Positions 5,047 to 15,072 of a stretch of DNA of 21,655 nucleotides are shown here, in pieces (the stretch's first letter is position 1; each line of letters starts with the position of its first letter). The notes beneath the pieces are model-generated. The model was not told the origin of the DNA and did not search any database. It saw only the letters and a program-made list of their open reading frames with translations. Source of the DNA: a virus; IMG/VR virus record IMGVR_UViG_3300018634_000001, positions 1 through 21,655 of that record. The stretch is one strand, 5' to 3'. The translations under genes were made by a program, and so were the position numbers.

Positions 5047-6921
5047 ATGCGCCCATTATTTAGATTAGACATTAATGGAATTAGAGCCCTTGCGGTATTA
5101 GCTGTAATGCTTTTTCACTTTAATCCTAACTGGCTACCTGGTGGCTTTGCTGGGGTGGATGTGTTTTTTGTGATTTCTGGTTTTTTAATGACTCAAATTA
5201 TTTTTCGTGGCTTAGAGCAAAACAATTTCAACCTTTTTGCTTTCTATGTTGCCAGAGCTAATCGCATTATACCAGCATTGGCGTTTATGTGTATGGTCCT
5301 TCTTGTTTTAGGAGTTATTTATTTATCACCACTTGACTTATCTTCACTAGCTCGCTCGACGAGCTACACGCTTTCATTTATTTCTAATTATCAATACCTA
5401 AGAGAAGTTGGTTATTTTGCTCCCGTTGCGCAGACTCAATGGTTGCTTCATACTTGGTCTCTTTCAGTTGAGTGGCAATTCTATCTTTTTTATCCCGTCA
5501 TATTGATGTTGTTTGGGCGCATCATGCCACTTAGATGGATTAAATGGATGATTGCGGGCATGGCTTTGATTGGTTTTATCATGTATTTAGAACTATCTAA
5601 ATATTATGCGCATGCCGTTTTTTTTAGCCTTCATACCAGAATTTGGGAATTGCTCTTTGGTGGTTTGGCTTACTGCTTCCCTGTAACACTGCAATCAAGG
5701 TGGAAACGCCGTTGTAGTTGGCTCGGTATTGGCGCGATATGTATTAGTTTTTTTACATTAGACCAATATATTCTACCTGGGCCTATGGTTCTCGTTCCTA
5801 TATTGGGTGCGTATCTGGTGATTATCGCTGATACACATAATCAGTTATTAAACCACAGTATCAGTCAAACCTTGGGACGTTACTCTTACTCTTTATACTT
5901 ATGGCATTGGCCCATTGTTGTCGCAGCCCATGTGTTAGACATCCCTTATCTACCCTATTGGGGCATTCCTCTTGCGTTTGCATTAGCAGGGTTGAGCTAT
6001 CGACTCGTTGAGCAATTTCATTGGAAAAAGTTTGATCGCTGGGCTGACTTGATCAAAGTAAAGCCTGTTTTATTTGCCTTGTTGCTCATTGGGTGTAGCA
6101 AATTTATCAACAAACATAATTTTATTTTTAGTGATTATACATTAGAACAAAAAGATAAAATCTCAAAAATAGATAGTTTTTTTAAACTACCGGAATACAG
6201 ACGATTAACTAAAAATAATGAGAAATGCATTAACCGTAGAGTGTCAAATTCTTGTTCTTTTGGCGATAACCGCTGGATAGCTGTAGGCGACAGTTTTGCT
6301 GGGCAGCTCGGCAGAGCATTGCTAGATGCAAGCAAATACAAAGGGTTTTTATTTTTAGTTAAAGAACAGTGTCCCCTTGTTAGTTCAAAAATTTGGTTTA
6401 GCTCTGTTACAGATTGCATGCAATACAACGCAAATAGAATTAAATATTTATCGAACCTCAAAAACAAAAATATCATTGTCTCTGTAAATTATGCGCAATT
6501 TAATGAACCCAGGACCAATAAAAATAATGCAAATTTTGCATGGATTAGCTTTGCTGAACAAATAAAAATGTTACTAAAAAACAATAAAGTTTTTTTAGTG
6601 TACCCGATACCAAGATCATTGATAGAGCCTAAAAAAATAGCGTTATCTCAAATTTTTGAAGAATCTCCAAAAAAAACCATATTCTCTCATCGTTTGAAGC
6701 GGTACGCGTTGAACAAAAACATGAGCAAAAAACTTGATACGCTTTTACCAAAATCAAAAAATTTAATTGTGATAAAGCCAGCAGATCATCTATGCAACAA
6801 CAATCGATGCTATATCGTTAAAGATGCTCATGTTTTGTATACAGACAAAAATCATTTGTCGTATGCTGGAGCTAGCATAATCGTTAACGCTATAAATAAA
6901 GCATCTCATTATAAGTTATAA
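5047..6921 (+). CDS. OafA-type O-acyltransferase with C-terminal SGNH domain (624 aa)
   Basis: Integral inner-membrane acyltransferase, probably acetylating O-antigen or another surface glycan. Residues 1-330 form an acyltransferase-3 domain with about ten hydrophobic segments and the family hallmarks R-x6-R-A at 6-14, His24 and GGFAGVDVFFVISGF at 32-46. Residues about 390-624 form an SGNH domain with a GDSF block (Ser416 as nucleophile) and D600-K-N-H603 near the C-terminus, so both catalytic blocks look intact. Length is typical for the fused form. ATG 5047 has only a weak TGGA upstream. The gene runs opposite to the tail genes on both sides, as expected for an independently expressed lysogenic-conversion gene, as O-antigen acetylases are in Shigella phages such as Sf6. 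The 3' part appears more AT-rich than the 5' part. The acyl group and sugar substrate are not predictable. Confidence 0.92.
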   Translation: MRPLFRLDINGIRALAVLAVMLFHFNPNWLPGGFAGVDVFFVISGFLMTQIIFRGLEQNNFNLFAFYVARANRIIPALAFMCMVLLVLGVIYLSPLDLSSLARSTSYTLSFISNYQYLREVGYFAPVAQTQWLLHTWSLSVEWQFYLFYPVILMLFGRIMPLRWIKWMIAGMALIGFIMYLELSKYYAHAVFFSLHTRIWELLFGGLAYCFPVTLQSRWKRRCSWLGIGAICISFFTLDQYILPGPMVLVPILGAYLVIIADTHNQLLNHSISQTLGRYSYSLYLWHWPIVVAAHVLDIPYLPYWGIPLAFALAGLSYRLVEQFHWKKFDRWADLIKVKPVLFALLLIGCSKFINKHNFIFSDYTLEQKDKISKIDSFFKLPEYRRLTKNNEKCINRRVSNSCSFGDNRWIAVGDSFAGQLGRALLDASKYKGFLFLVKEQCPLVSSKIWFSSVTDCMQYNANRIKYLSNLKNKNIIVSVNYAQFNEPRTNKNNANFAWISFAEQIKMLLKNNKVFLVYPIPRSLIEPKKIALSQIFEESPKKTIFSHRLKRYALNKNMSKKLDTLLPKSKNLIVIKPADHLCNNNRCYIVKDAHVLYTDKNHLSYAGASIIVNAINKASHYKL

Positions 6922-6922
6922 G

Positions 6923-7723
6923 TTACGCTGTACGTTTCCACCACACGCCATTGAGCACCCGCCCCTGCACACTAAAAGTCCCCGGTGGGTCTCCTGCTGC
7001 ATTTACCGTGACTGTTCCGGTCGGTGTTCCAGCAGTCGCAGGCTGTGTGTCAGCAAAACCCGCTTTGATTATATCATTTTGATCAGCGTTACCATCGTAT
7101 GCCGGTTGTCCTTCTGTCGCTTGATATCTAGCACTATGCGCATGCGGCGGTAGCTCATCACCGGTAAATGTTGCTGTATGCGTGTGCTGTAAAAGTGGCA
7201 CGGGCGGTGTATTATCTCCCGTTACTGTGCCGATTGCATCATCTCCTGGTTCAACAGCTGCAAGAGATGCACCTGCCTCGATTGACACCCATGTGCCAAC
7301 GTATCCGAGCTGATTCGGGGTCAAATCAACAGTTAAAAATAATGTCTCACCGACTGCTAACTGCGGCCGTACCTCTTGCCACAACGCTGGAGAGGTCATC
7401 GGGTTTGCGTTTAATGATGAAGATAGCGCTCTATATTCAATTCCGTTGTCTGCGATTACTCTAGCATTTGTTATATAACTAGTCTCAGCATTCCAACCGA
7501 GGATGCCTGTCCTCTCAATCAAATCCACTAGTGTTGACAGTCTGTATAAATACTCGTTTTCAATCGCACTACCAGCAAGCGTGTCAAATTTTTTGAGCGC
7601 TGCTTGTATTTGAGCATCTGTTATTGTCGTGTCTCTGTACCCGTTTCCAGTGCTCGGACTAGATGTGTCAGTGCTAGCTGCCTCACCGTACACAGCTGGC
7701 CCCTTGAAGATTCGTGTTGCCAT
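6923..7723 (-). CDS. collar-type tail fibre or tail tip protein (266 aa)
   Basis: Probable short fibre or tip protein. ATG 7723 follows AGGAG by six bases. A stretch at about residues 75-118, with W-x-A-x-T-x-Y, a hydrophobic-NGIEYRAL strand and a closing SPALWQEV, resembles the small carbohydrate-binding modules of the CBM5/12 type. Residues about 180-200 contain H-T-H and, a little later, PPHAHS; such histidine pairs are typical of the collar region of phage fibres, where HxH motifs bind metal in trimers. The protein ends in VWWKRTA, a common terminus of such fibre proteins, so it is complete. It directly follows the DUF2612-type baseplate gene. Its stop is one base from the stop of the convergent acyltransferase. 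Confidence 0.75.
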   Translation of the reverse strand: MATRIFKGPAVYGEAASTDTSSPSTGNGYRDTTITDAQIQAALKKFDTLAGSAIENEYLYRLSTLVDLIERTGILGWNAETSYITNARVIADNGIEYRALSSSLNANPMTSPALWQEVRPQLAVGETLFLTVDLTPNQLGYVGTWVSIEAGASLAAVEPGDDAIGTVTGDNTPPVPLLQHTHTATFTGDELPPHAHSARYQATEGQPAYDGNADQNDIIKAGFADTQPATAGTPTGTVTVNAAGDPPGTFSVQGRVLNGVWWKRTA

Positions 7724-7735
7724 TTTTTCTCCTCA

Positions 7736-8428
7736 TTAAACAGCGTAATTAGCTTGGTCGTACCCCTTGTTGGGCAATATGCTATCATATGTAAATGCCG
7801 GGTTCGGTCTAAATATTACATCAACTATGCGCCCTGTGGAAGGTATCGGCAAAAAGTATACTTTATCAGTTGTCACTGTGTCAGTGACTTTTGTCAGATT
7901 CTGAACAATGTATGTCGGCGTGTTCGCCGGGACGATTAAACTGATGTCACTCATCCCTTCTTTGCGAATCGATATGTTTATACCGTAAACTAGCTTAACA
8001 ACCTGCAAAATCTCAGGCACTGAACCGTATTTGACGTGATTTTTAAATATACGAGCGTATATCAGCTGTCGATACGTAAAATCACTAGCAATCAAATTGC
8101 CGCCAATCGGGGCACCTTCTATATAGCAGATTCCTTCTTCATATCCAACATTTTTAGTATCATACGCAAACCAATTCTTATTGCCATAGTTCTCTAGCTC
8201 TCTGCTCTGCCCCACGATGCGACCTATGATGTCAAGCTGAACGCCAACTGCATCATCTAAGCAGCGTAATTGCATTGCATCTATTAATGATTGATACAAA
8301 TCAATTGATTGATTATTGATTGCAGATTGCGCTCCAAGCAGTATTTGAGAGCGTCTAAATTGAGAGAGAGTCAAATCACACGCTTGCTTGACTTGGTCTT
8401 TGTCGTAAACGCTAAAATCACAACTCAT
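7736..8428 (-). CDS. DUF2612-type tail protein I-like baseplate protein (230 aa)
   Basis: Baseplate-to-fibre connector occupying the position of P2 gpI. The N-terminal half has the conserved pattern of a helical region followed by LDDAVGVQLDIIGRIVGQSR, and the middle contains RQLIYARIFKNHVKYGSV followed by a hydrophobic segment and YGINISI; these are features of the DUF2612 family. The C-terminal 60 residues are beta-rich and likely contact the fibre. The ATG overlaps the gpJ stop by four bases (8425-8428), and the fibre gene follows 12 bases after the stop. Family assignment is from motif recall. Confidence 0.8.
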   Translation of the reverse strand: MSCDFSVYDKDQVKQACDLTLSQFRRSQILLGAQSAINNQSIDLYQSLIDAMQLRCLDDAVGVQLDIIGRIVGQSRELENYGNKNWFAYDTKNVGYEEGICYIEGAPIGGNLIASDFTYRQLIYARIFKNHVKYGSVPEILQVVKLVYGINISIRKEGMSDISLIVPANTPTYIVQNLTKVTDTVTTDKVYFLPIPSTGRIVDVIFRPNPAFTYDSILPNKGYDQANYAV

Positions 8429-9636
8429 GATACTGTTACCGTGATGTTTGATGCATCAAATATAGCGACCTCGTTAAATGCGATGGGTATTTGCGTTGTC
8501 GAACCATTTACAGTGATACTGTTAATTCTATGACCTGACACCTGATTGACTGGCGTATATAGCCGACTCACGATAACATCTGTGCCCGGTGGGAATCCGT
8601 TTTGATCAAATCCATCAGTAATGCCAAACGCATCAGCCCCTTCTAGCGAGTACAGCACAATGTTGTCTTTGATTTGTTGGTCTCCATCTGTTGGATAGAC
8701 AGCCGAATTAACGACTGTAATATCAACATCAACTGTCATCGGGACCTGCGTAGGTCGACTAAATCGCACTGGGTTAGGTTCACCCTGAGCGTCAAATAGT
8801 ATGACCTCGATATCACCAAAAAATTCTGCTGTGCAACCCGAACGCTGCAATATTGTTTTTGCGATCTCTGTATCATCGCCACCTAAAACAATGCACGCCT
8901 GCTGTTTTGCAGGTATACCATCCGCATCCGTTGTTAGCGTGTTATTGATTTTGACGCGAGCAAATGTGACATTTTCTAGATTAGCAAGATTTGCTTGCAC
9001 GCTATCGCTGGGCGCAGCACTAGGCGCAGCGTTAGAGCTCCTGCGCCTAACCTCCGCTTGTGTGTCTGTCTCTACATTTACTCCCGTAACTATAGTTGAG
9101 GTATTCGTAACACTATCCCAGTTTGGTTGAGGTGTTTTGATTTTAGTAATAGTACCGTTGGTAACAATGATTGGACCGTCAACCGTTGCGGTTGCGGTTG
9201 CGGTCGCAACGCCCGATTCGTCAAATGTTACAGTTTGATCAGTTGTAAACAGATTACTATCAAATACATCTGATATTGTCTGACCTGCTAACACTGTTGC
9301 TCCTGCTGTGCCAATCATTTCTATGCTTAAAATTGTTGGAGAAGAGGGTATCCGTGATATGCCAGTTATCTCTAATAACCCGTCGACAGCAGGACCGACC
9401 GCTAACAAGGGATTAAACTGATTGTACGCAAGCTGCGCTGCTTCCCAGCCCTGTGCTGTTTGATTGAGCGGGACTTGTACAATCTGCATAGCGGGGTCGT
9501 CACTATTAAAATCTGGATTGAGACGATTACCAGTTTTTTGATCAACTATTTCTGCGAGCTCTACGCTTGTTTCATCAAGAATATCTGCTAAACGCTTGGC
9601 TTCCCAGCCTTTGGGCGTGACACCATATTTTGACAT
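8425..9636 (-). CDS. baseplate J/gp47-family wedge protein (403 aa)
   Basis: Baseplate wedge protein (P2 gpJ, Mu gp47, T4 gp6 family) that links hub, wedge and fibres. The N-terminal helical part has the family's LNQTAQGWEAAQLAYNQFNP-type segment at about residues 57-76. The core shows QAEVRRR near residue 193, followed by SDSVQANLANLENVTFARV, the classical J-domain signature. The C-terminal third includes the segment from PVNQVSGH into beta strands typical of the family. A hexamer repeat at 9185-9208 encodes an Ala-Thr run. ATG 9636 starts three bases after the lipoprotein stop, with GGTGA as ribosome binding site. Confidence 0.88.
   Translation of the reverse strand: MSKYGVTPKGWEAKRLADILDETSVELAEIVDQKTGNRLNPDFNSDDPAMQIVQVPLNQTAQGWEAAQLAYNQFNPLLAVGPAVDGLLEITGISRIPSSPTILSIEMIGTAGATVLAGQTISDVFDSNLFTTDQTVTFDESGVATATATATVDGPIIVTNGTITKIKTPQPNWDSVTNTSTIVTGVNVETDTQAEVRRRSSNAAPSAAPSDSVQANLANLENVTFARVKINNTLTTDADGIPAKQQACIVLGGDDTEIAKTILQRSGCTAEFFGDIEVILFDAQGEPNPVRFSRPTQVPMTVDVDITVVNSAVYPTDGDQQIKDNIVLYSLEGADAFGITDGFDQNGFPPGTDVIVSRLYTPVNQVSGHRINSITVNGSTTQIPIAFNEVAIFDASNITVTVS
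9185..9208 (-). repeat. in-frame hexanucleotide repeat in the gpJ-like gene
   Basis: Three perfect copies of GTTGCG (plus-strand reading) and one variant copy encode an Ala-Thr run. Slippage by whole units would keep the frame. Confidence 0.8.
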
Positions 9637-9639
9637 ATA

Positions 9640-10011
9640 TCACCATTTCAATTTTTTGTGCTTCGCTTCTAGATTATGCGCGTACATTCTGTTTAATGTA
9701 ACATAGCTGCACATATTTAAACCGCCATTGCAATATTGCCTAATCATCGTTTTTAACAAATTCTTGTCTTTAGTTTGCAAAAGCGCCTGAAACGCTTCAA
9801 GATTTGCTCGCTCCATTCTTCTAAGAGATGCGGGTGAGCACATTTTGAGTGCGCTTCTGCAGTATTGATCATGAACGCGAGCTTCTATGTATGATACTAC
9901 GCGCTGCCTGTTTGCTTGTGTGTCTATATACCCAATCGGGCTAATAAACCTAGCCGTGCTCGCGCACGCGCACGCGCTAATTATATACAGTATAAATAAT
10001 CTTTTATGCAT
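9640..10011 (-). CDS. putative lipoprotein with duplicated Cys-x6-Cys motif (123 aa)
   Basis: Unrecognised exported protein. The N-terminus (MHKR, then a hydrophobic run) ends in I-S-A-C at residues 11-14, a good lipobox, so Cys14 may be lipidated; cleavage by signal peptidase I near ACAS is the alternative. The mature part contains two related segments 43 residues apart, each with QYC-x3-L-x-MCS, then L-x-RM and NLEA (residues 49-73 and 92-116, 14 of 26 positions identical). The paired cysteines (51/58, 94/101) suggest periplasmic disulfides. The start overlaps the upstream wedge-gene stop by eight bases and the gpJ gene starts three bases after its stop, so it is a full member of the late operon. 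Candidates: superinfection exclusion, a baseplate-associated lipoprotein, or a lysis-related protein. No match to spanin or known exclusion families was recognised. Confidence 0.75.
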   Translation of the reverse strand: MHKRLFILYIISACACASTARFISPIGYIDTQANRQRVVSYIEARVHDQYCRSALKMCSPASLRRMERANLEAFQALLQTKDKNLLKTMIRQYCNGGLNMCSYVTLNRMYAHNLEAKHKKLKW

Positions 10012-10384
10012 AAATTACTACCTTTTTTTCTGTATTGTCTGTCTCAACTATTACACTAGCAACAATTGACGCTGTTCGCACTGTTGCGCTATATGATATC
10101 TCAAATTTATCGATACGTTTAACGTTATCAACATCAAGAATTTGACGTCTAAAAATAGCAGATATCTCATCTGCCTGCATTTTGCTGCCTAATATGCCGT
10201 CTTGTGATTCATCGTTATTATAGTACGGTATACCTATTTTCGTATCTAGGAACCACTCGCCCAGCTCAGTTTGTACGCGAGTCTGTATTGCGTCTGTTGT
10301 TGCCTGCTCGCCGACGCTCAAAGACACACGACCGCCCTCGCTTATTTCAAAATCGTTATCTACTAATTTTAAACTAAAAATCAT
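10004..10384 (-). CDS. gp25/gp46-like baseplate wedge protein (126 aa)
   Basis: Small baseplate wedge protein related to Mu gp46 and T4 gp25/P2 gpW. The signature is T-x-A-I-x-T-R-V-x-T-E-L-G-E-W-F followed by a short strand and GIPYYN (about residues 29-56), then the I-x-R-R-Q-I helix and beta strands of the C-terminal half. Length fits the family. The ATG overlaps the spike-gene stop by four bases (10381-10384). The place between spike and gpJ genes is the expected one, except that the lipoprotein gene separates it from gpJ. Confidence 0.85.
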   Translation of the reverse strand: MIFSLKLVDNDFEISEGGRVSLSVGEQATTDAIQTRVQTELGEWFLDTKIGIPYYNNDESQDGILGSKMQADEISAIFRRQILDVDNVKRIDKFEISYSATVRTASIVASVIVETDNTEKKVVIYA

Positions 10385-12993: not shown

Positions 12994-14456
12994 TGTACTA
13001 ATGGGACCTGAGTTGCAAGTGTTGAAAAGTCGCTTACCGATTCTTTGGCGACCGCCATTGGGCTGCCTGCCCCGCTTATATTTTGAGTGAGCGAAAATGA
13101 ATTGTTATTGTTTGTGTTTGCGCTTGAATTTTGAATTACTTGTGCGGGAACGGGTGCAGATTGAGTTGATGATAATGTTTTGCTTTGTGCCCCCCCATCT
13201 TCACTGCCAATATACTCATCCAAGGCGTCAAGTCCTTTTCCAATCATGTCGCCAACAAATGAAAATACCGACATGATTTTTTTAAATCCATCTTTTATTG
13301 AGTCTATGTAGACAGAAAAAAAGTCCTTGACTGAATCAATGATTGAGTTAAATGCTTTTTTAACTACTCTCGAAATGTTTGGAAATCTTTCAGTGAATGC
13401 ATCAACAAATTTTCCAATTATGCTATCACCGCCCCTAAAGTAGGCCCAGATGTCCTCCATGACCAGCACTAATCCCGCAATGCCAATTGCGGCAGCAACA
13501 AAGGGCGCTGCAATGAGCGCAGCCTGCGCTGCCATCGACGCGAGACCCCCAGCGACAAGGACTGCTATCGCTTTTGTTGCGTCTAGATCGCCCGAAAATT
13601 TATCCAAATCGGGCAAAAACGATTTTATAAAATCCCAAGCTTTGCTTATTGCGTCACTAAAAAGTTCAAAACCAAGTCGCGCACCATCAATGACTTGCGT
13701 GATGCCCAAATCAATAAATTTCCGATTAACATCAATGAAATTCTGCCATTTTTTTGCCATCTCGGTCAGAACAGGGAAAAATTTACTAACAGCTGTATTG
13801 ACAACTCCAGTGACTGTAAATCTCAAATTAAACAGTGCGTCATCTAAATCGGCAGCCGATTTTGCTGTTTTTTCGGATAGAACGCCGCCTAGCTCTCTAG
13901 CTCTATCTGTTAATTCCTTTACACCGTCGGAGCCTGATTGTAGCAGTCTAATCGTTGATTTAGAGAGCCCCAACTTGTTACCAAAATCTTGCGCCTTTTT
14001 GTTGCTCATCGTGCCGAATTTTTCAGCTAAATCACCAAACAACTCTGTTGCTGTTTTTATATCACCATTGGATTTACGTGCGCTAATTCCTAGCTGAAGA
14101 AGCGCTTCGCTGTATGCGCCTGGGTTTGACGTGTCGACAATTTTAGAGAGCGTCTCTAGATCTTTGTTCATGTCATCTACAGAGCCGCCCGATAATACCG
14201 AAGCATAACCGAGCTCTTGCAACTTCTCAAAAGTGACGCCAATGCTTGCTGAAAATTTGCCCTGAGCGTCCACAGAATTAGCAAGAACTAGCGCGTACCC
14301 TTGGGCCGCAGTTGCTGCAACATTTAAAGCTTTACCAAGCTGGGCAGCTTTTTTACCCATGTCGACAAGATTTTTTTTAAAGTCAGCCGCTTCTTTTTTT
14401 GAAGAAGGATCAACTTCAAGCCCAAGTATCGTCACAAACTCATCGACTATGCTCAT
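12990..14456 (-). CDS. tail tape measure protein (488 aa)
   Basis: Sets tail length and is ejected with DNA. The N-terminal third is mainly helical with many Lys/Ala/Leu. The region around residues 290-335 is strongly hydrophobic and Ala/Gly-rich, as expected for the membrane-inserting part of tape measures. It is followed by M-E-D-I-W-A-Y-F-R-G-G-D-S at about 332-345, a recurrent signature of such proteins. The tail end is Ser/Asn/Gln-rich. At about 0.15 nm per helical residue, 488 residues imply a tail shorter than about 75 nm, small for a myovirus. It starts by ATGA overlap with the chaperone frameshift extension, the universal position. Confidence 0.88.
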   Translation of the reverse strand: MSIVDEFVTILGLEVDPSSKKEAADFKKNLVDMGKKAAQLGKALNVAATAAQGYALVLANSVDAQGKFSASIGVTFEKLQELGYASVLSGGSVDDMNKDLETLSKIVDTSNPGAYSEALLQLGISARKSNGDIKTATELFGDLAEKFGTMSNKKAQDFGNKLGLSKSTIRLLQSGSDGVKELTDRARELGGVLSEKTAKSAADLDDALFNLRFTVTGVVNTAVSKFFPVLTEMAKKWQNFIDVNRKFIDLGITQVIDGARLGFELFSDAISKAWDFIKSFLPDLDKFSGDLDATKAIAVLVAGGLASMAAQAALIAAPFVAAAIGIAGLVLVMEDIWAYFRGGDSIIGKFVDAFTERFPNISRVVKKAFNSIIDSVKDFFSVYIDSIKDGFKKIMSVFSFVGDMIGKGLDALDEYIGSEDGGAQSKTLSSTQSAPVPAQVIQNSSANTNNNNSFSLTQNISGAGSPMAVAKESVSDFSTLATQVPLVQ

Positions 14457-14734
14457 CGTTTGTTTCTCTCTGCCTCAGTTTGCGCCATTTTGTGTTGCTC
14501 CCACTCTAACCAACTGTTTAGCTCTATCATGCTCATCATGTCGCGCATATCGTACCAATCGAGCTTTCCGCTATTTAATTCGATGTACGTGCAGTATCCT
14601 GCTGTGACAACCGAGCTAACCATGTACTCAACAGTCCAATCTTCGGGAATTTGAACAGTTAATCCCCTGTTTTGCTGGGGAAGCTCTTTCCCAAGCCCAA
14701 AAAATAACCTCCGCACACTTCTTTTATAAGCCAA
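14453..14734 (-). CDS. tail assembly chaperone, -1 frame extension (gpT-like)
   Basis: Reading frame overlapping the end of the 137-residue chaperone gene by 76 bases in the -1 frame. Its apparent first codon at 14734 is TTG with no ribosome binding site, so independent initiation is unlikely. Translation most probably enters from the upstream gene at the slippery heptamer 14692-14686, adding 77 residues to residue 129 for a fusion of about 206 residues. The part beyond the slip contains a P-E-D-W-T-V-E-Y motif and a Trp-rich end with YDMRDMMSMIELNSWLEWEQ. This is the G-T fusion of lambda-like and other tailed phages, which binds the tape measure during tail assembly; the tape-measure gene starts at its stop. 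Confidence 0.85.
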   Translation of the reverse strand: MAYKRSVRRLFFGLGKELPQQNRGLTVQIPEDWTVEYMVSSVVTAGYCTYIELNSGKLDWYDMRDMMSMIELNSWLEWEQHKMAQTEAERNKR

Positions 14735-15072
14735 ACAAGAAAAGGAAAAAGATTTTCAGGCTGGTCATTAAAATGCACATCAAGTACATCACTTTCAATA
14801 CGCATGTCGCTCCCATCTTTATACACTTTTGACATGTCTAATAGTTCAATAGCAGAGTCATATATCATATCAGTGTCTACTGAGTTTAGTGCTGAAACAA
14901 GCATCGGAATGGCTTTGTTATTATCGCTAATTTCACTCAATTCGCTAGTATTTATACTTGTGAGTAGCCCGCCCAGTTGTGTAGCTAGCCGCGCTGCAAC
15001 ACGGCCCGATTTTAAAATAGGAGGGTTTTCTAGTATGATGTACGTTGTGCTTGCTATTGTGTGTTTTTTCAT
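14659..15072 (-). CDS. tail assembly chaperone (gpG-like) (137 aa)
   Basis: Zero-frame product of the chaperone pair, by position and by the frameshift signal at its 3' end. It lies between the tube gene and the tape measure gene, where such chaperones are always found. It is a mixed helical protein with an N-terminal beta strand region (TIASTTYIILENPP) and helices further on. The last nine codons lie after the slippery site, so most ribosomes would make this 137-residue form and a minority the longer fusion. The start is ATG 15072, 14 bases after the tube stop, with a weak GAGAA. Sequence similarity alone did not identify it; the assignment rests on context and frameshift. Confidence 0.8.
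   Translation of the reverse strand: MKKHTIASTTYIILENPPILKSGRVAARLATQLGGLLTSINTSELSEISDNNKAIPMLVSALNSVDTDMIYDSAIELLDMSKVYKDGSDMRIESDVLDVHFNDQPENLFPFLVWLIKEVCGGYFLGLGKSFPSKTGD
14663..14704 (-). other. programmed -1 ribosomal frameshift signal (lambda-type slippery heptamer)
   Basis: On the minus strand the upstream frame reads TTG GGA AAG, giving the heptamer G GGA AAG at 14692-14686, identical to the phage lambda G-T site and in the correct frame. A second slippery heptamer, T TTT TTG, sits a few codons earlier at 14704-14698, also in frame. A possible stimulatory hairpin follows: TCCCC (14681-14677) pairs with GGGGA (14667-14663) around a nine-base loop, about four bases after the heptamer. 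Slippage leads into the -1 frame that stays open to 14453. Confidence 0.85.

What the first reader, a model, noticed from the sequence alone, without database searches (positions are those of the whole stretch)
9640..10011. Lipoprotein with duplicated Cys-x6-Cys motif inside the baseplate operon
A 123-residue protein with a lipobox (I-S-A-C, Cys14) is translationally coupled between the gp25-like wedge and gpJ genes, where no exported protein is expected. Its mature part holds two related segments 43 residues apart (14 of 26 positions identical), each with QYC-x3-L-x-MCS and NLEA. It could be a superinfection-exclusion lipoprotein, an envelope factor made late in infection, or a tail-associated lipid-anchored protein. 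I recognise no family.
Basis: partly seen in the sequence, partly recalled or inferred. Interest (0 to 1): 0.7.

Follow-up and report, generated by a model that had tools for sequence, protein, structure and literature searches.

The report
Secreted cargo protein of prophages
A small secreted protein sits inside this phage's tail-baseplate genes; it belongs to an unnamed family that prophages of many gut- and plant-associated bacteria carry as extra cargo, probably to change the bacterial envelope or block rival phages, though its function is untested.

Summary
The gene, its duplicated Cys-x6-Cys segment and its place between the gp25 and gpJ genes are real (14/26 identities between segments, 0 of 10,000 shuffles). 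It is not a family of one: full-length relatives (31-46% identity) occur in 42 viral contigs (including the window phage itself) and scattered gammaproteobacterial genomes. Pfam, NCBIfam, PHROGs and the PDB hold no convincing match. All 33 aligned relatives have a signal-peptidase-I site and none a lipobox. The phage protein keeps that site (STA|RFISP), so its ISAC 'lipobox' is probably incidental. The confident model is four helices: two disulfide-capped hairpins. Relatives sit in at least four kinds of phage location: between antiterminator Q and lysis genes, between tape-measure and DNA-circularisation genes, at the int/ogr end of P2-like prophages, and beside a repressor. About half are followed by a terminator-like hairpin. 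Distribution is sporadic (9 of 246 family genomes; 1 of 369 class-wide). Four related phages have gp25 and gpJ directly abutting, so it is an insertion. Best reading: an exported phage moron, most likely blocking superinfection in the periplasm; lysogenic conversion is nearly as likely. The function is inferred, not shown.

The parts
9640..10011 (-). gene of the 123-aa exported cargo (moron) protein
   Evidence: ORF; full-length relatives; alignment
9952..10011 (-). signal peptide, residues 1-20, predicted signal-peptidase-I cut STA|RFISP
   Evidence: all 34 rows have Ala at -1 here
9970..9981 (-). ISAC, lipobox-like stretch (Cys14), probably incidental
   Evidence: absent in all 33 relatives
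9790..9867 (-). repeat 1 (residues 49-74): Cys51-x6-Cys58, end of helix 1, loop, helix 2
9661..9738 (-). repeat 2 (residues 92-117): Cys94-x6-Cys101, end of helix 3, loop, helix 4
10004..10384 (-). upstream neighbour: gp25-like baseplate wedge / sheath initiator, overlaps the cargo gene by 8 nt
   Evidence: phrog_120 E 1.2e-15
8425..9636 (-). downstream neighbour: gpJ-like baseplate wedge, starts 3 nt after the cargo gene
   Evidence: phrog_6, Baseplate_J

Best explanation
The gene is a moron: a cargo gene not needed for the virion, carried by phages and prophages of Gammaproteobacteria and, in this phage, inserted between the gp25 and gpJ baseplate genes so that it is made with the late tail proteins. 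Shown by sequence and comparison: it carries an export signal, is conserved over its full length, has moved between unrelated phage locations, and is inserted here. Inferred: after export and signal-peptidase-I cleavage it folds in the periplasm as two disulfide-capped helical hairpins, with Cys51-Cys58 and Cys94-Cys101 closing the turns. There it most likely blocks a second phage at the genome-entry step, by binding a tail tip, tail lysozyme or tape-measure protein that crosses the periplasm. Rough weights: exported moron of this family 0.9; periplasmic rather than lipid-anchored 0.75; superinfection exclusion as the function 0.35-0.4.
For: Family: tblastn hits in Aeromonas, Pseudoalteromonas, Pseudomonas, Pantoea and Yersinia records; 10 GTDB loci and 42 viral contigs; 25 invariant columns over 34 rows. 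Export: Ala at -1 in all rows, no lipobox in relatives. Moron: directly after antiterminator Q and before endolysin in lambdoid prophages; between tape measure and DNA_circ_N in a tail operon; next to CI repressor, integrase or ogr; terminator-like hairpin within 8-44 nt of the stop in 22 of 49 genes against 58 of 1,200 control windows; 1 of 369 class genomes and 9 of 246 family genomes; 15 context changes on the tree. Insertion: gp25-gpJ abut in four related phages. Fold: four helices, mean pLDDT 94.7 for a mature relative, 84.3 for the whole window protein. Paired cysteines: L105 has lost both Cys of repeat 1 and kept both of repeat 2. Precedent: T4 Spackle, a periplasmic disulfide-bonded helical bundle that inhibits the incoming tail lysozyme (PMC7677548); Ltp of TP-J34, anchored repeat domain (PMC3952083); HK97 gp15 and P22 SieA (PMC10883804).
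Against: No experiment and no homolog of known function. No sequence or fold match to Spackle or Ltp appeared, though these searches cannot exclude a distant one. Some relatives stand alone on chromosomes beside pqq, frm or flagellar genes, which fits a host benefit as well as phage exclusion. In the window the gene is placed for late expression, whereas exclusion genes are often expressed in lysogeny; no promoter or terminator of its own was found here. Cys14 could still be lipidated.
Confidence: 0.42

Rival explanations
1. Lysogenic conversion for host benefit: the protein alters the envelope or survival of the lysogen (for example binding a host envelope or secretion component) and has nothing to do with other phages.
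For: Stand-alone chromosomal copies beside unrelated housekeeping genes; recurrent DUF6694 lipoprotein neighbour outside prophages; a copy next to type III secretion genes on a Yersinia plasmid; the window phage carries another envelope-modifying cargo gene, an SGNH O-acetyltransferase.
Against: No conserved chromosomal neighbourhood apart from DUF6694, and a sporadic distribution.
Confidence: 0.33
2. Periplasmic lysis-timing factor (an antiholin or endolysin regulator) made with the late genes.
For: In lambdoid prophages it is the first gene after Q and lies directly before holin and endolysin.
Against: Elsewhere it is far from lysis genes: tail operon, int/ogr end, repressor region, bare chromosome. 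It would have to act on unrelated holins.
Confidence: 0.1
3. A true outer-membrane lipoprotein anchored through Cys14, unlike its relatives (a question of location; it can combine with any of the functions).
For: ISAC fits the lipobox pattern, with a short hydrophobic stretch before it.
Against: 0 of 33 relatives have a lipobox; the signal-peptidase-I site STA|R is retained, and Ala20 and Phe22 are invariant. Some relatives carry Cys in the hydrophobic stretch without a lipobox (L074, L028).
Confidence: 0.2
4. A baseplate or tail structural or assembly protein, as its position suggests.
For: Translational coupling to gp25 and gpJ; relatives in a second tail operon.
Against: Signal peptide in all members; related phages build the baseplate without it; most relatives are outside tail operons.
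Confidence: 0.04

Closest known systems
T4 Spackle (gp61.3), periplasmic superinfection-exclusion protein
   Same: Small phage-encoded periplasmic helical protein with a disulfide (PMC7677548).
   Different: 75-aa mature protein with one long-range disulfide (Cys29-Cys81) and no duplication known to me; no sequence or fold match found here.
Ltp of Streptococcus phage TP-J34, superinfection-exclusion lipoprotein
   Same: Phage-encoded envelope protein whose active part is a repeat domain (PMC3952083); its target is the tape measure protein.
   Different: Lipid anchor and serine-rich spacer, Gram-positive host; the present family is secreted with disulfides and no lipobox.
HK97 gp15 and P22 SieA
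   Same: Prophage cargo genes acting at the inner membrane against DNA entry (PMC10883804).
   Different: Inner-membrane proteins; the present protein has only a cleavable signal and a soluble helical domain.
Lambdoid late morons between Q and lysis genes
   Same: Same place in seven lambdoid loci on the tree and the same logic.
   Different: This family also occupies tail-operon, int/ogr and repressor sites and chromosomes.
DUF6694 (PF20404) lipoproteins
   Same: Direct neighbour in at least four loci.
   Different: A separate family, with a real lipid attachment site; absent from the window.

Membership tests
Unnamed family 'HPMDFDG / YC-x6-C twice / LxW-end' | Full-length similarity with signal peptide, four Cys, C-terminal L-x-W | tested here: met
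   25 invariant columns including C51, C58, C94, C101, L121, W123; the window copy departs from HPMDFDG (SPIGYID)
Phage moron (cargo gene) | Insertion between genes that are adjacent in related phages | tested here: met
   gp25-gpJ abut or overlap in four phages
Phage moron (cargo gene), strict sense | Own promoter and terminator | tested here: not met
   Window: no terminator behind the gene and promoter-like sites at chance number, so the window copy is a moron in the broad sense only. Relatives: 22 of 49 have a terminator-like hairpin. Own promoters were not established.
Phage moron (cargo gene) | Sporadic presence in unrelated phage contexts | tested here: met
Bacterial lipoprotein | Lipobox Cys conserved as residue +1 in the family | tested here: not met
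   ISAC only in the window copy, none of 33 relatives
Bacterial lipoprotein | Lipid modification of Cys14 in this copy | not testable with these tools
   needs labelling or mass spectrometry
T4 Spackle-type lysozyme inhibitors | Sequence homology to Spackle | tested here: inconclusive
   profile search of the PDB found no such hit
T4 Spackle-type lysozyme inhibitors | Same fold | tested here: inconclusive
   no match above Z 3.4; these lists cannot exclude a fold
Superinfection-exclusion proteins (function) | Blocks superinfecting phage | not testable with these tools
   needs a plating assay
Curated families (Pfam, NCBIfam, PHROGs, PADLOC) | Match above curated cut-off (Pfam, NCBIfam) or a significant, consistent match (PHROGs, PADLOC) | tested here: not met
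   none; weak SspB hits in 5 of 34 members (best E 2.3e-4), none for the window copy, judged not convincing

The most novel reading that the evidence does not exclude
An unrecognised, mobile family of secreted, disulfide-braced proteins that works, together with a DUF6694 lipoprotein where present, as an envelope-level anti-phage system that prophages and bacterial chromosomes exchange.
Probability: 0.15. Interest if true: 0.8.

Novelty: new member of a known kind. Interest (0 to 1): 0.5.

Why it matters
It defines an uncatalogued family of exported prophage cargo proteins with no convincing match in Pfam, NCBIfam, PHROGs or the PDB and none in 50,697 phage records, yet recurring in at least four kinds of prophage location. 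That is the pattern expected of a gene giving lysogens a real advantage. It is small, soluble and confidently modelled, so exclusion, envelope change and lysis timing can be tested directly in laboratory strains. The DUF6694 neighbour gives a first candidate partner.

Tried and rejected
PHROGs, Pfam, NCBIfam and PADLOC with the window protein or relatives: only weak, scattered hits, including SspB in PADLOC for 5 of 34 members. PDB by sequence: nothing of value. Foldseek and VIA-align on two models: best Z 3.4, rows tied and unrelated. T3SS pilotin InvH appeared at Z 3.3 (66 residues, 4.9 A) in one model only and was not taken as kinship. Phage records with two family proteins: no hit. E. coli genomes by nucleotide search: no hit with a relative's gene, and only neighbouring Q or holin DNA in a second search. 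First scan of genome contigs with the single sequence failed; the alignment was needed. DUF6694 search in the window: none. An empty Q-lysis site was not found as one clean match. Literature on DUF6694: none held.

Full report
Observation. The ORF at 9640-10011 on the minus strand is real, 123 aa, and set tightly in the tail operon: its ATG overlaps the stop of the gp25-like gene by 8 nt (ATGCATAA), and the gpJ gene starts 3 nt after its stop. The duplicated segment (residues 49-74 and 92-117) has 14 of 26 identities; none of 10,000 shuffles reached more than 10.

A family exists. The window protein has no hit in phage records and no convincing hit in Pfam, NCBIfam, PHROGs or the PDB. A translated search of plasmid records gave five full-length relatives at 34-40% identity in Aeromonas, Pseudoalteromonas, Pseudomonas, Pantoea and Yersinia. 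An alignment of these reached 10 GTDB genome loci and 42 viral contigs, one of which is a near-identical copy of the window phage. Over 34 aligned members 25 columns are invariant, including all four Cys of the mature part and the C-terminal L-x-W. The window copy is the most diverged row on the tree (end branch 1.56).

Export and the lipobox. All 34 rows have Ala at position -1 of a signal-peptidase-I site immediately before x-F-[IV]-x-P; the window reads STA|RFISP. None of the 33 relatives has a lipobox. I therefore read the protein as secreted to the periplasm and the ISAC at Cys14 as probably incidental, but lipidation of this one copy is not excluded. No trained signal-peptide predictor was available.

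Structure. AlphaFold2 gives four helices; the mature part of the window protein scores about 77-98 per ten-residue block and a mature relative averages pLDDT 94.7. Each Cys-x6-Cys spans the turn between two helices, so the protein is two similar hairpins. In L105 both Cys of repeat 1 are gone while both of repeat 2 remain, which fits pairing within each repeat; the model coordinates themselves were not inspected for the sulphur distances. No solved or viral model matched; for small helical bundles that does not prove a new fold.

Where relatives live. (a) Lambdoid prophages: directly after antiterminator Q (PF03589, or DUF1133) and before the endolysin (PF00959 or GH19). (b) A tail operon between tape measure (PF10145) and DNA_circ_N (PF07157). 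(c) The int/ogr end of P2-like prophages. (d) Beside a repressor in Aeromonas. (e) Alone on chromosomes beside pqq, frm or flagellar genes (these host genes were named by eye from their translations). On the tree the context labels need 15 changes, against a least possible 5. Of 49 genes with downstream sequence, 22 are followed within 8-44 nt by a terminator-like hairpin, against 58 of 1,200 random windows; members of one clade share hairpins, so these are not 22 independent events. Presence is sporadic: 1 of 369 genomes across the class, 9 of 246 in one family.

Insertion in the window. In Psychrobacter phage pOW20-A, Vibrio phage CP-T1, Elizabethkingia phage EKP1 and Pantoea phage SSEM1 the gp25-like and gpJ genes abut or overlap. 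The gene is therefore extra in the window phage. Unlike about half of its relatives it has no terminator there and is coupled to its neighbours.

A recurrent neighbour. A DUF6694 lipoprotein gene (PF20404) lies next to the family gene in three of nine family genomes and near it in a P2-like prophage (L056). It occurs in 24 of 246 genomes overall, so adjacency by chance is very unlikely. Its function is unknown, and the window does not carry it.

Mechanism. Shown: export signal, conservation, insertion, repeated capture by different phages. Inferred: periplasmic, disulfide-braced, acting on the envelope. I commit to superinfection exclusion at genome entry as the single most likely function (0.35-0.4), because phage-encoded exported envelope proteins with tested functions include Spackle, which inhibits the incoming tail lysozyme (PMC7677548), Ltp (PMC3952083), and gp15 and SieA (PMC10883804). 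Host-directed lysogenic conversion is almost as likely (0.33), given chromosomal copies and the DUF6694 neighbour.

Verdict. A real, uncatalogued family of exported prophage cargo proteins; a new member of a known kind (morons in the broad sense), with an untested function.

Noticed in passing
L102:8822-9172(-), L104:9546-9938(+), L103:9653-10060(+), L056 about 6919-7233(+): A DUF6694 lipoprotein gene lies directly beside the family gene in at least four separate loci, inside and outside prophages.
   Followed up: partly
window 5047-6921 (+): An acyltransferase-3/SGNH O-antigen acetylase gene sits on the opposite strand among the tail-fibre genes: a second envelope-modifying cargo gene in the same phage.
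   Followed up: partly
window 14453-14734 and 14659-15072 (-): Two small ORFs before the tape-measure gene overlap in different frames, like a frameshifted tail assembly chaperone pair.
   Followed up: no
L105:9279-9656(-), L106:9114-9440(+): Degenerate family members at the end of P2-like tail remnants near trmD/ffh; L105 has lost both Cys of repeat 1 only, and L106 looks like a fusion of tail-gene and family fragments.
   Followed up: partly
L016, L017, L091-L094: Wohlfahrtiimonas genomes hold shortened or broken relatives, some in several copies, next to a roughly 714-aa gene that looks like an amino-acid decarboxylase.
   Followed up: no
L007:7950-8315(+): In Yersinia frederiksenii a plasmid copy lies just after type III secretion needle-tip genes.
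   Followed up: no
L058:7640-8282(+): In one tail-operon relative the family gene is broken into two frames by an inserted segment.
   Followed up: no
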